Shown piece by piece: positions 8,588-17,220 of a DNA stretch of 64,000 nt. Positions within the stretch are counted from its first letter, which is position 1; each line of letters opens with the position of its first letter. Where the stretch lies: assembly GCF_005377625.1 (NCBI RefSeq), contig NZ_CP040098.1:930001-994000 (forward strand), given 5' to 3'. This DNA is from Desulfoglaeba alkanexedens ALDC. GTDB taxonomy: Bacteria > Desulfobacterota > Syntrophobacteria > Syntrophobacterales > DSM-9756. The notes under the pieces are model-generated. The model was given only the letters and a program-made list of their open reading frames with translations, ran no database searches and was not told the DNA's origin. The translations under genes and the position numbers were made by a program.

Positions 8588-8680
8588 CGTTTTCAAGACG
8601 GGCGCTTGAGGGCTGGAAGTCCCCCTGGGAACCGGGGCTTCGGTTCGTGTTTTCGTGCCGGCGGGCGAAAGGAGAGGGTC

Positions 8681-9025
8681 ATGGAGAAGAACACGTGGAA
8701 GTTCGTGGTGAACACGCTGCTTTTCGTTGATTTCTGCACCCTGGCGGCCATCGGGCTGTTGCTGGGCCTGGTGGTTCCCAAAGGAGGCGGTCGGCAGGGC
8801 ACGAACAGCTTCTTGGGATTGCAGCGCCACGACTGGGGAGACATTCATTTCACCCTGGCTCTCCTTTTTCTGGGGTTGCTTGTCGTGCACATCTGGAACA
8901 ACTGGACCTGGGTCGTCCAATCGGCCAAGCGGATCTTCGGCGAACTGTCGAGCAAGGCGCTCTGCATGATCGCTGGGGCATGGATCCCCCTTCTCTTGAT
9001 CCTGTGGCTCGCCGCCCGCTTTTGA
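8681..9025 (+). CDS. Small membrane protein, DUF4405-like (possible heme b binding)
   Basis: A 114-aa protein with three transmembrane helices (about residues 7-30, 55-75 and 93-112). Between and within them are histidines in HDWGDIHF and VVHIWNN, spaced on neighbouring helices as in DUF4405 and other small cytochrome-b-like proteins. That suggests possible heme ligation and membrane electron transfer, but no biochemical role can be assigned. AAGGAGAGGGTC precedes the ATG at 8681. No redox partner gene is adjacent. Confidence 0.7.
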   Translation: MEKNTWKFVVNTLLFVDFCTLAAIGLLLGLVVPKGGGRQGTNSFLGLQRHDWGDIHFTLALLFLGLLVVHIWNNWTWVVQSAKRIFGELSSKALCMIAGAWIPLLLILWLAARF

Positions 9026-14165: not shown

Positions 14166-15707
14166 CTACGGCATCCGCCTCGCTACCGCCCGTCTGAAGA
14201 CAAGCAGGTAATGCAGTGCGCCGCCCCAGGCGAGAAACGCCGTGTCGCGGAGGGCGCTCCAGGCCATATTTCCGGAATCCCCCGTTCCCGGGCCGGCGAC
14301 GAAGCAGCCGCAATCGACGTTCAAACCCCTATGGATGTTGAATAAGAGAACCCCCAGAAAAACCGCCAGCAGACTGTCGGCCGTAAGCAGCGCTCCGGGA
14401 AGCCAGAACCCGAAGAGCACGCAGAGCCCGACCAGGCATTCGAGCCAGGGGAGCACAAGGGCGGCCGGATTGATCCAATAGTCGGGCAGAATCTGGTAGT
14501 TGAAAACCGCCTGTGCGAAGGCTTCAGGCTGCCGGATCTTGGCGGCACCGGCATAGAGGAACATGCCCCCGAAGAGCATTCTGCAAGCGGCAAGCAGCCC
14601 AGCCCTCAGTCGAACCCGCCTTTCTTCCGCCTTTCTGCGTTTTTCCTCTTGAGACTCCGGCTCCGCTGCCGCTGCGCACGAGAGTTCGCAAAGGAGGCTC
14701 CCGTTCCCGCATGGCACGGTTTCGAATTGGAGGACGGGATGGTCGATCCCGAATCGCCGCCACAGATCCTCGCGAATGCGTTCCGCAAGCACCTCGGTGC
14801 GGCTCACCGGCTGATCGGCCACCACCAAGTGACACGAAAAGGCCACGCTGGAAGCGCTCACGTTCCACGCGTGAACGTAGTGCACACCACACACGTCCGG
14901 AAAGCCCTCCAAGTAGGTCTTCACTTTCTCGATGTCCAGACCCCTGGGCGTCGCATTCATCAGGATGGTTGCGGCCTCTTTCAAGATCGACCAGCAGTTT
15001 TTCAGAATGAAGACAACGATCGTCAGCGAAAGCAGCGGATCGAGCCAGTACCAGGGTTTGAAGAGAAGTACGGCACCGTTCAGCAGGACCACCACGGAGG
15101 TAAGAAGGTCGCCCATCATGTGAAGGAACGCGCCGCGCACGTTGAGGCTGTGCTTGGCGTCGCGATGAAGGAGCCACGCGGAAAAGCCGTTTCCCGCCAC
15201 GCCGACGGCCGCGACGGCCATGACCAGCTGCCCCGATACGGCTTCAGGGCTTTGAAAGCGCCGAACCGCCTCGTGCACGATGAATCCCGAAGCCCCAACC
15301 AGAATGGCCACGTTGGCCAGGGCGGCAAGAATCTCGGCCCGCTTGTAGCCGAACGTGAGCCTCGGAGACGGTCCGCGCCGTCCTATGAGAAACGCGAAAT
15401 AGGCGATCACGATGGCGGTGAAATCACTGAAATTGTGGGTCGCATCGGAAATCAAGGCCACGCTGTGGGCGTAAAAACCTCCGGCCATCTGGACCGCCGG
15501 AATGAGCAGGTTAAGCCCCATGGTGAGAAGGAGCCTCGAGCCTTGCGCCCTTTCTACGTCGGGAGCACGATGCGGTCCGAAAGACACGCCATGGCACCCG
15601 CACTCATGATTGAGGCCGCAATTCCCCCCGACAAGATCGCCGGCGGCCGAAGCCTCGCCACCGGCAGCCTCTTCAGGAGGCGGAACCTGCGAAACGTCTT
15701 GCGTCAT
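14166..15707 (-). CDS. CDF-family metal efflux transporter fused to a MauE domain
   Basis: A 513-aa membrane protein joining two families. Residues about 20-50 form a Cys/His-rich tail (GNCGLNHECGCHG...H). Residues about 55-345 are a cation diffusion facilitator: six helices with SDATHNFSDF and HMMGDLLTS, the HxxxD-type zinc site motifs, then a cytoplasmic tail (VKTYLEGFPDVCGVHYVHAWNVS). Residues about 370-513 are a MauE/DoxX-like four-helix domain with GAAKIRQPEAF and the NVDCGCF cysteine pair. MauE-type proteins usually pass redox equivalents for disulfide chemistry. The single frame is continuous, with no stop or shift at the junction. It lies 115 bp after a membrane rhodanese gene, a partner commonly next to stand-alone MauE in related bacteria. 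Confidence 0.9.
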   Translation of the reverse strand: MTQDVSQVPPPEEAAGGEASAAGDLVGGNCGLNHECGCHGVSFGPHRAPDVERAQGSRLLLTMGLNLLIPAVQMAGGFYAHSVALISDATHNFSDFTAIVIAYFAFLIGRRGPSPRLTFGYKRAEILAALANVAILVGASGFIVHEAVRRFQSPEAVSGQLVMAVAAVGVAGNGFSAWLLHRDAKHSLNVRGAFLHMMGDLLTSVVVLLNGAVLLFKPWYWLDPLLSLTIVVFILKNCWSILKEAATILMNATPRGLDIEKVKTYLEGFPDVCGVHYVHAWNVSASSVAFSCHLVVADQPVSRTEVLAERIREDLWRRFGIDHPVLQFETVPCGNGSLLCELSCAAAAEPESQEEKRRKAEERRVRLRAGLLAACRMLFGGMFLYAGAAKIRQPEAFAQAVFNYQILPDYWINPAALVLPWLECLVGLCVLFGFWLPGALLTADSLLAVFLGVLLFNIHRGLNVDCGCFVAGPGTGDSGNMAWSALRDTAFLAWGGALHYLLVFRRAVARRMP

Positions 15708-15822: not shown

Positions 15823-16332
15823 CTACTCAGGCTCGAGTCCGAATCCTCCGGCCACATCCACGGGAAGCGTTCGGTCCCGCCAGACCGTCCAGCCGTTCAC
15901 CAGCACCCGCACATGGGTGTACCCCTTGGCCAGGAGCGCAAGGGCCAACTCCCGGCTCAACCCGCACCCCTCCCCGTCGCAGTAGGTGACGATCACGACG
16001 TCCCGGCCGACATCCCCCATGACCTTTTCAAATGCCGTTTCGAACTCCATCCACGGAAGATTCCGCGCTCCGTAGATGTGCCCCGAAGCGTACTCGGAAG
16101 CATCTCTCGCATCCAGGAAAACCGCTTCCCCGGAAAAGAAAAGGGCCTCTGCTTCTTCGATGGGAATAGAGAGGTTCGTTCCATTTTCCAGGGAAAGCCG
16201 AGCCTCCGGGGACCAGTCGCCAATCAACGGAATCCCGTCGGGGCGGATGGCGTTTACCCCCAGCGCCAGCAGTCCCGCCGCAAGAAGCAGCGCCGCCGCC
16301 TGACAGAGGCTCTTCGTGCAGATTTCCACCAT
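15823..16332 (-). CDS. Membrane-anchored rhodanese-domain protein
   Basis: A protein of about 169 aa with one N-terminal hydrophobic helix (SLCQAAALLLAAGLLALGV) and a periplasm-facing rhodanese domain. Seen: the entry motif AVFLDARDASEYASGHIYGARNLP and the active-site loop TYCDGEGCGLS, whose first Cys is the expected sulfur carrier. It would carry persulfide sulfur or reducing sulfur chemistry at the outer face of the membrane. It is followed by the CDF-MauE fusion and preceded by arsC, all on the same strand. The start is uncertain: ATG at 16332 has an AAGGGG 11 bp upstream; an ATG at 16353 is also possible. Confidence 0.83.
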   Translation of the reverse strand: MVEICTKSLCQAAALLLAAGLLALGVNAIRPDGIPLIGDWSPEARLSLENGTNLSIPIEEAEALFFSGEAVFLDARDASEYASGHIYGARNLPWMEFETAFEKVMGDVGRDVVIVTYCDGEGCGLSRELALALLAKGYTHVRVLVNGWTVWRDRTLPVDVAGGFGLEPE

Positions 16333-16489
16333 GCTCAAGGCATCCCCTTCCATTGCGGCCGTCCGGTACCCGGGCGGTATGGGCTGGATTGCATCGTCCA
16401 GCACGCCGTCAAGGGTTCTGAATCTCGGTCCGCTGCGCTCAACGCCGCGTTTCGGGCCGCCACCCACGCTCATGACTTAAAAAAACCAC

Positions 16490-16936
16490 TCATGCCGAAC
16501 ACCCCGTTTCCAGGCCATCGGGAAGCCTTTCCACAAAGCGCCGCACTTCGTCTCGAACCCTCCGGTAATGCGCCAAGGCGTCTTCCTCAGTTGCCGCGCC
16601 GGCGGCCAGCTTCGGAGGATCCTCGAAGGGGGCGTGGATTCTCTTCACGCGTCCCGGAAAGAAGGGGCATGTTTCCTGCGCATGGTCGCAAAGTGTCACA
16701 ACGTAATCGAATTCCAAGCCGGCCAGGTCATCGATGGACTTGGACCGCTGGCCGGAAATGTCGATGCCCGCTTCAGCCATGGCGCGAACGGCACGCGGGT
16801 CCACGGTCTTCGGTTCGACTCCGGCGGAATGAGCTTCAATCACATCACCCTTGAGGGCCCGCGCCCACCCCTCGGCCATCTGGCTTCTGCAGGAGTTCCC
16901 GGTACAGAGAAAAAGGATGCGTCGTTTGGATTCCAT
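16490..16936 (-). CDS. arsC: Arsenate reductase, LMW-phosphatase type
   Basis: A 148-aa cytoplasmic enzyme that reduces arsenate to arsenite, normally recycled by thioredoxin. Seen: the P-loop CTGNSCRSQ (residues about 10-18) with nucleophilic Cys and Arg, and the second redox pair in VTLCDHAQETCPFFPG. All three catalytic cysteines of the pI258-type family are present, which separates it from plain low-molecular-weight tyrosine phosphatases. ATG at 16936 with GGGAGG upstream. No arsenite pump or ArsR is adjacent; instead the next genes are rhodanese and CDF-MauE, suggesting a small metal/thiol stress cluster. Confidence 0.92.
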   Translation of the reverse strand: MESKRRILFLCTGNSCRSQMAEGWARALKGDVIEAHSAGVEPKTVDPRAVRAMAEAGIDISGQRSKSIDDLAGLEFDYVVTLCDHAQETCPFFPGRVKRIHAPFEDPPKLAAGAATEEDALAHYRRVRDEVRRFVERLPDGLETGCSA

Positions 16937-17220
16937 CTGGGTTCCAGCCTCCCTTTCAGGTCGATACACTGGCGGCTTTGCGGCTCCCCTTCCGGAGACT
17001 CAGCGGCCGGTCTCGTTCCGACACGAATGGCGGCCAGGAAGCCAGGCCCAAGCGTTCGCCCCACACGGCCGTCAGGTGAGCGCCCGAAAAGGCTTCCCGC
17101 ACGGTATTGATCCGCCAGCCCAACAAGGCTCACAACAAGAGAAGCGACGATTCGCTGATGAGTCGGCATGAAGAAACCTCATTAGGGCCCGAGTTCCATG
17201 AGCTTGTTTTCGACAAGCCC

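What the first reader, a model, noticed from the sequence alone, without database searches (positions are those of the whole stretch)
14166..15707. A zinc exporter fused to a MauE/DoxX redox domain
Seen: one uninterrupted frame joins a CDF transporter with HxxxD sites to a MauE domain with the DCGC pair, preceded by a Cys/His-rich tail and neighboured by a membrane rhodanese and arsC. Known: MauE-type proteins supply reducing power for disulfides. Inference: metal export is coupled to periplasmic thiol or persulfide chemistry, or the fusion lets sulfur stress and metal efflux share one complex.
Basis: partly seen in the sequence, partly recalled or inferred. Interest (0 to 1): 0.62.

Follow-up and report, generated by a model that had tools for sequence, protein, structure and literature searches.

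The report
Zinc exporter fused to MauE domain
A bacterial zinc-export protein really is joined in one chain to a membrane thiol-redox domain; the same fusion is conserved across many sulfate-reducing relatives, usually right behind a rhodanese gene and inside arsenic-resistance gene clusters, which points to a shared defence against metalloid and thiol stress that can be tested.

Summary
Window 14166-15707 (-) is one open frame of 513 aa: a ZnT/ZitB-like CDF zinc transporter (HNFSD and HMMGD sites, cytosolic CTD) followed by a four-helix MauE/DoxX-type domain with an invariant CGC pair. It is not a sequencing error: at least 22 genomes (window included) in at least six families of the phylum carry it full length, among them Desulfobacter vibrioformis and Desulfoferrobacter suflitae. 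No match passed E 1e-76 in about 745 genomes from two other phyla. Both halves are under purifying selection. A membrane-anchored rhodanese with a CDGxxC loop lies directly upstream in most carriers (9 of 10 fused, 0 of 70 unfused loci in one sample), usually within an ars island (ArsR, ArsP, ACR3, ArsC, Trx, CcdA). Rhodanese-MauE pairs without the CDF are common. Best reading: a zinc exporter and a quinone-linked periplasmic thiol/sulfane-redox module, co-inherited as part of arsenic/thiol-stress defence. Direct coupling of transport to redox is not shown. The Cys/His tail is variable and more likely a ZnT8-like zinc site. I found no published description of the fusion. New variant of known kinds.

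The parts
14166..15707 (-). CDF::MauE fusion gene, 513 aa
   Evidence: single open frame; Pfam Cation_efflux, ZT_dimer and MauE; AlphaFold2 model pLDDT 83 with 6 helices + CTD + 4 helices
15558..15707 (-). N-terminal Cys/His-containing tail (residues 1-50), variable between relatives
   Evidence: alignment; pLDDT below 50 for residues 1-47
14961..15557 (-). CDF transmembrane domain (residues 51-249) with HNFSD (15423-15437) and HMMGD (15108-15122)
   Evidence: invariant in fused and unfused relatives; ZnT/YiiP fold matches
14718..14951 (-). Cytosolic zinc-transporter dimerisation domain (residues 253-330), with H276, H293 and E329 conserved
   Evidence: ZT_dimer; invariant columns
14676..14711 (-). 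CDF tail motif CGNGSLLCELSC (C333, C340, C344)
   Evidence: shared with unfused CDFs of the subfamily; aligns to the ZnT8 C-terminal cysteines
14175..14654 (-). MauE/DoxX-type four-helix domain (residues 352-511); C466-G-C468 at 14304-14312 in the loop between the last two helices, predicted periplasmic
   Evidence: MauE; models; invariant CGC
15823..16473 (-). Membrane-anchored rhodanese with active loop CDGEGC; true start probably the ATG near 16353
   Evidence: Pfam Rhodanese E 5e-17; directly upstream of the fusion in most carriers
16490..16969 (-). arsC-type arsenate reductase (pI258/thioredoxin-like LMW phosphatase fold)
   Evidence: TIGR02691 145 bits, under its 174-bit cut-off, and LMWPc; ArsC homologues in the same island in relatives

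Best explanation
The gene encodes a two-part inner-membrane protein. The N-terminal part is a ZnT/ZitB-like CDF that exports zinc (possibly also cadmium) from cytosol to periplasm by H+ antiport through the His-Asp-His-Asp site. Its Cys/His tail and CGxGxLLCxxSC motif probably bind regulatory zinc on the cytosolic side. The C-terminal part is a DoxX-like four-helix MauE domain whose CGC pair faces the periplasm. It probably exchanges electrons between the neighbouring rhodanese (CDGxxC, a persulfide or disulfide carrier) and the quinone pool, as the DoxX-rhodanese pair is thought to do in mycobacteria. The two activities are inherited together as part of an arsenic/thiol-stress module: arsenite binds protein thiols and can displace zinc, so cells that reduce and expel arsenic also need to expel displaced zinc and to repair or recycle thiols and sulfane sulfur. 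Shown: architecture, conservation, selection, gene context. Inferred: substrates, electron partners, the reason for co-inheritance.
For: One frame with both domains. Fusion in at least 22 genomes including G000 (8 genomes of family f1, 5 of f2, 3 of f3, and 6 in f38, f62, f93) and in named organisms. Invariant HxxxD sites and CGC. dN/dS 0.06-0.14 for the CDF half and 0.11-0.29 for the MauE half. Best fold matches are human ZnT3/ZnT1. Rhodanese directly upstream in 9 of 10 fused and 0 of 70 unfused loci; rhodanese-MauE pairs without a CDF are frequent. ars islands with ArsR, ArsP, ACR3, ArsC, Trx and CcdA around the fusion. Two of three unfused pairs overlap at start/stop codons. Topology: positively charged linker and C-tail put the CGC loop outside. 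Precedent: the DoxX-SseA-SodA complex oxidises thiosulfate and is genetically tied to the metal ATPase CtpC (PMC7662651; PMC6930017). Arsenite displaces zinc from cysteine-rich sites (statement in PMC9965246).
Against: No biochemistry. In family f2 (5 of 5 genomes) the fusion has neither rhodanese nor ars genes nearby. In this genome only arsC and the rhodanese remain beside it, and the ACR3-like and ArsP matches lie far away on the chromosome. The halves separate and rejoin on the trees. CDFs of other phyla also sit near ars genes now and then without MauE. Wild-type E. coli K-12 showed no change of its zinc proteome under arsenic (PMC9965246).
Confidence: 0.5

Rival explanations
1. Two independent proteins in one chain: the fusion only fixes equal amounts and co-location of a zinc exporter and a thiol-redox protein that do not influence each other.
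For: Separate versions exist, two of three with overlapping start/stop codons, which already favours coupled translation; the fused state changes about 7-8 times on the trees; variable linker length and sequence.
Against: The fused state is kept in every sampled member of two families and found in at least six, with both halves under selection.
Confidence: 0.3
2. Direct coupling: the redox or persulfide state of the periplasmic CGC/rhodanese pair gates zinc export, or exported zinc is used in sulfur chemistry.
For: Covalent fusion plus conserved rhodanese; both act on the periplasmic face in the predicted topology.
Against: CDFs of the same subfamily exist without MauE, and MauE-rhodanese without the CDF; no conserved element in the linker beyond the CDF's own motif.
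Confidence: 0.13
3. The MauE half is a structural or assembly domain that stabilises the CDF dimer, with no redox activity.
For: The closest solved fold is NACHO/TMEM35A, a receptor assembly factor (VIA Z 12.7, rmsd 2.2 over 119 residues).
Against: Invariant CGC pair and conserved rhodanese neighbour; a shared helical bundle does not show function, and Z near 13 is close to what helical bundles can reach by a common arrangement.
Confidence: 0.06
4. Assembly or sequencing artefact joining two genes.
For: The two halves are separate genes in some relatives.
Against: The same junction in more than 20 independently assembled genomes.
Confidence: 0.01

Closest known systems
CDF zinc transporters (ZitB, ZnT1/3/8, YiiP/FieF)
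   Same: Six helices, HxxxD in TM2 and TM5, ZT_dimer cytosolic domain, His/Cys tail and C-terminal cysteine motif comparable to the ZnT8 cytosolic zinc sites
   Different: Four extra helices (MauE) fused at the C-terminus
MauE (PF07291) / DoxX family membrane proteins
   Same: Four-helix domain scoring 91 bits to MauE and just over the DoxX cut-off; CGC pair
   Different: Fused to a transporter; neighbours are ars and rhodanese genes, and no mau gene was seen (no match to methylamine dehydrogenase light chain in the genome, though that search had no positive control)
DoxX-SseA-SodA complex of Mycobacterium tuberculosis
   Same: A DoxX-family membrane protein with a rhodanese-type partner, with a genetic link to a metal transporter, CtpC (that SseA is a rhodanese is from general knowledge)
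   Different: No SodA among the neighbour genes identified; rhodanese is single-domain and membrane-anchored; the metal transporter is a CDF in the same chain rather than a separate P-type ATPase
ars operons that hold a CDF
   Same: A survey of about 2,500 strains listed two CDFs in ars operons, both with ACR3 (PMC4435449)
   Different: That survey text mentions neither DoxX nor MauE, and here the association is recurrent in one phylum

Membership tests
CDF zinc transporter (ZnT-like) | Cation_efflux and ZT_dimer domains | tested here: met
   147.9 and 42.7 bits, both over cut-off; TIGR01297 261 bits
CDF zinc transporter (ZnT-like) | His-Asp-His-Asp transport site | tested here: met
   H91/D95 and H196/D200, invariant
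CDF zinc transporter (ZnT-like) | Zinc/proton antiport activity | not testable with these tools
   needs an assay
ZitB equivalog (NF002923) | Score over the curated cut-off of 408 bits | tested here: not met
   200.6 bits
MauE family (PF07291) | Profile match over cut-off | tested here: met
   91.4 bits against 27
MauE family (PF07291) | Four membrane helices with a conserved cysteine pair | tested here: met
   models; invariant CGC
MauE of methylamine dehydrogenase maturation | Located with methylamine dehydrogenase and mauD | tested here: inconclusive
   no PF02975 match in the genome, but the control genomes did not ring either; neighbours identified are ars/rhodanese genes
DoxX-SseA-SodA type complex | Rhodanese partner gene | tested here: met
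   directly upstream in most carriers
DoxX-SseA-SodA type complex | Thiosulfate-oxidising, thiol-recycling activity | not testable with these tools
   needs an assay
DoxX-SseA-SodA type complex | Association with SodA | not tested
   no SodA among the neighbour genes identified, but SodA was not searched for
ars operon | Co-location with ArsR, an arsenite transporter and ArsC | tested here: inconclusive
   ars genes in most carriers of families f1 and f3 and in several Desulfobacteraceae loci, not in f2; in this window only arsC is adjacent
Rhodanese-type arsenate reductase (HAC1, CX4R) | CX4R active loop in the neighbouring rhodanese | tested here: not met
   loop is CDGEGC, C-x4-C, in the window; CDGxxC in most relatives; motif from PMC9454679

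The most novel reading that the evidence does not exclude
A redox-gated zinc exporter: the periplasmic CGC pair, loaded by the rhodanese with persulfide or disulfide, senses thiol/arsenic stress and switches or drives the CDF half, so that zinc efflux and sulfur-redox repair act as one machine.
Probability: 0.12. Interest if true: 0.78.

Novelty: new variant of a known kind. Interest (0 to 1): 0.5.

Why it matters
Metal efflux, arsenic resistance and periplasmic thiol/sulfur redox are usually studied apart. A recurrent covalent fusion of a zinc exporter with a DoxX-family redox domain, placed behind a rhodanese and inside arsenic islands of sulfate reducers, ties them together and gives a defined, testable two-gene module. 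It also adds a parallel to the DoxX-rhodanese-metal transporter link seen genetically in mycobacteria, and offers a handle on what MauE/DoxX proteins do.

Tried and rejected
Artefact/frameshift: rejected, the fusion recurs in many assemblies. Cys/His tail as a conserved redox element: rejected, it varies between relatives, and the conserved cysteines before MauE (CGxGxLLCxxSC) also occur in unfused CDFs. Rhodanese as HAC1-like arsenate reductase: its loop lacks the CX4R arginine. Fusion outside the phylum: no match at E 1e-76 in 347 and 398 genomes drawn from the phyla of two other CDF carriers; those scans had no internal positive control and a strict threshold. Paper searches for MauE with CDF, and for MauE/DoxX with rhodanese, found no report of the fusion. 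No solved structure relates to the MauE half by sequence, and Foldseek gave nothing at E 0.001; VIA-align put NACHO/TMEM35A first, and a VKOR-like structure appears there only at Z 6.2 with rmsd 7.7. The promoter/terminator scan was no better than shuffles. The tree of the short MauE domain does not resolve one origin with several losses from several origins.

Full report
The feature. Window 14166-15707 on the minus strand is a single open frame of 513 aa. Pfam assigns Cation_efflux (residues 59-249), ZT_dimer (253-328) and MauE (370-499), all over their cut-offs. NCBIfam calls it a CDF (TIGR01297, 261 bits), nearest to but well below the ZitB equivalog. An AlphaFold2 model on 42 sequences (mean pLDDT 83, pTM 0.56) shows six helices, a cytosolic alpha/beta domain and four more helices; residues 1-47 and 341-350 have pLDDT under 50. 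The CDF half matches human ZnT3, ZnT1 and ZnT8 best.

It is not an artefact. The genome is one 3.37 Mb contig, and this is its only MauE match. Among 59 relatives, full-length fusions occur in all seven other genomes of the same family, five of family f2 in the same order and three of f3 (two copies in one); G043 looks like a fusion cut by contig ends. A sample of 395 genomes of the phylum added six more in families f38, f62 and f93. Named carriers include Desulfobacter vibrioformis DSM 8776, Desulfoferrobacter suflitae DRH4 (two copies), a Desulfosoma MAG and Desulfobacteraceae MAGs. Samples of 347 and 398 genomes from two other phyla gave nothing at E 1e-76, with the caveat that these scans had no positive control.

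Conservation. Both HxxxD sites and the CGC of the MauE half are invariant in 14 aligned fusions. Pairwise dN/dS is 0.06-0.14 in the CDF half and 0.11-0.29 in the MauE half, so neither half is decaying. The motif CGxGxLLCxxSC between CDF and MauE is also in unfused CDFs of the subfamily, so it belongs to the CDF. It aligns with the C-terminal cysteines of ZnT8, which with an N-terminal His-Cys-His of the neighbouring subunit bind zinc in the cytosolic domain (PMC7428307). H276, H293 and E329 are also conserved. That these match the ZnT8 ligands His301, His318 and Glu352 is my inference.

Topology. CDF termini are cytosolic by established knowledge of the family. From there, four MauE helices put the CGC loop (residues 460-480) in the periplasm and the C-terminus (VFRRAVARRMP) in the cytosol; charges of linker and tail agree. 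This is inference, not measurement.

Gene context. A rhodanese with a predicted N-terminal membrane anchor and a CDGxxC loop lies directly upstream of the fusion in all eight f1 genomes, in f38, f62 and f93, and in most named loci. In the named sample 9 of 10 fused loci and 0 of 70 unfused CDF loci have it (Fisher p about 4e-11; related sequences and short flanks make this p-value optimistic). Rhodanese-MauE pairs without a CDF are common in the phylum, so rhodanese plus MauE is a module of its own to which the CDF is joined. Around the fusion, families f1 and f3 and several Desulfobacteraceae loci show an arsenic island: ArsR, small thioredoxins, ArsP permease, DGC protein, Fe-S protein, ACR3, ArsC, ArsM, universal stress protein, CcdA/DsbD-like, thioredoxin, and a DsbA-like protein. 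In the window only arsC and the rhodanese remain. In f2 neither is present. ArsP and ACR3-type matches of this genome lie far away.

History. On the CDF tree the fused label needs 8 changes (4 forced by well supported branches), and on the MauE tree 7. One old fusion with repeated splitting, or several joinings, cannot be told apart. In two of three unfused tandem pairs the stop of the CDF overlaps the start of MauE, so co-translation is probably kept even when the chain is split. In L046 a MauE protein behind a rhodanese has an N-terminal stretch resembling the CDF tail, perhaps a relic of a lost transporter (inference).

Mechanism. I judge most likely that the CDF half exports zinc, and that the MauE half is a DoxX-like membrane thiol or sulfane oxidoreductase working with the rhodanese. 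The best parallel is the mycobacterial DoxX-SseA-SodA complex, which oxidises thiosulfate, supports thiol recycling and interacts genetically with the metal ATPase CtpC (PMC7662651; PMC6930017). Why both in an arsenic island? Arsenite binds cysteine thiols and displaces zinc from cysteine-rich sites (statement in PMC9965246), which would call for zinc export and thiol repair together. This is inference. Against it, E. coli K-12 showed no change in its zinc proteome under arsenic, though its arsenic-sensitive mutant did. Electron direction, quinone use and metal specificity are not shown.

Fold of the MauE half. Alone it models well (pLDDT 85). No solved protein is related by sequence. The top structural match is NACHO/TMEM35A (Z 12.7, rmsd 2.2, 119 residues), a receptor assembly factor that I recall as DoxX-like. 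This keeps open a minor rival in which MauE is a structural domain.

What is known. CDFs in ars operons have been noted as rare (2 of about 700 transporters; PMC4435449). I found no paper that describes a CDF-MauE fusion. I rate it a new variant of known kinds: a new, conserved domain architecture with a consistent partner, of moderate interest, with a direct path to test.

Noticed in passing
L046:7290-7937 (G048): A MauE protein behind a rhodanese has an N-terminal stretch (DNDHASLRSERSEGDSDTMLKEVSC) that resembles the tail of the CDF half, as if a fused transporter had been lost.
   Followed up: partly
L024, L025, L041, L050 (G027, Desulfoferrobacter suflitae): One genome holds two fused and two unfused CDFs of this subfamily, three of them inside separate arsenic islands.
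   Followed up: partly
L149-L188: Rhodanese with a CDGxxC loop directly upstream of a MauE gene is a recurrent pair in the phylum, independent of any transporter; I found no paper on its role.
   Followed up: partly
L024:7241-8725: A protein with an apparent VKOR-like N-terminal membrane part, a SurA-like stretch and a DsbA-like thioredoxin domain sits right after the fusion in G027 and near it in G011 (the VKOR part is my reading; Pfam reported the last two).
   Followed up: no
L098:6001-7773: In a Bacteroidales MAG the CDF match spans 1.77 kb for under 300 query residues, suggesting two neighbouring CDF segments or an insertion.
   Followed up: no
window 8606-9025: A small membrane protein like the one (DUF4405-type by my reading) that follows rhodanese-MauE in L045 lies about 6 kb from the fusion, on the other strand.
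   Followed up: no
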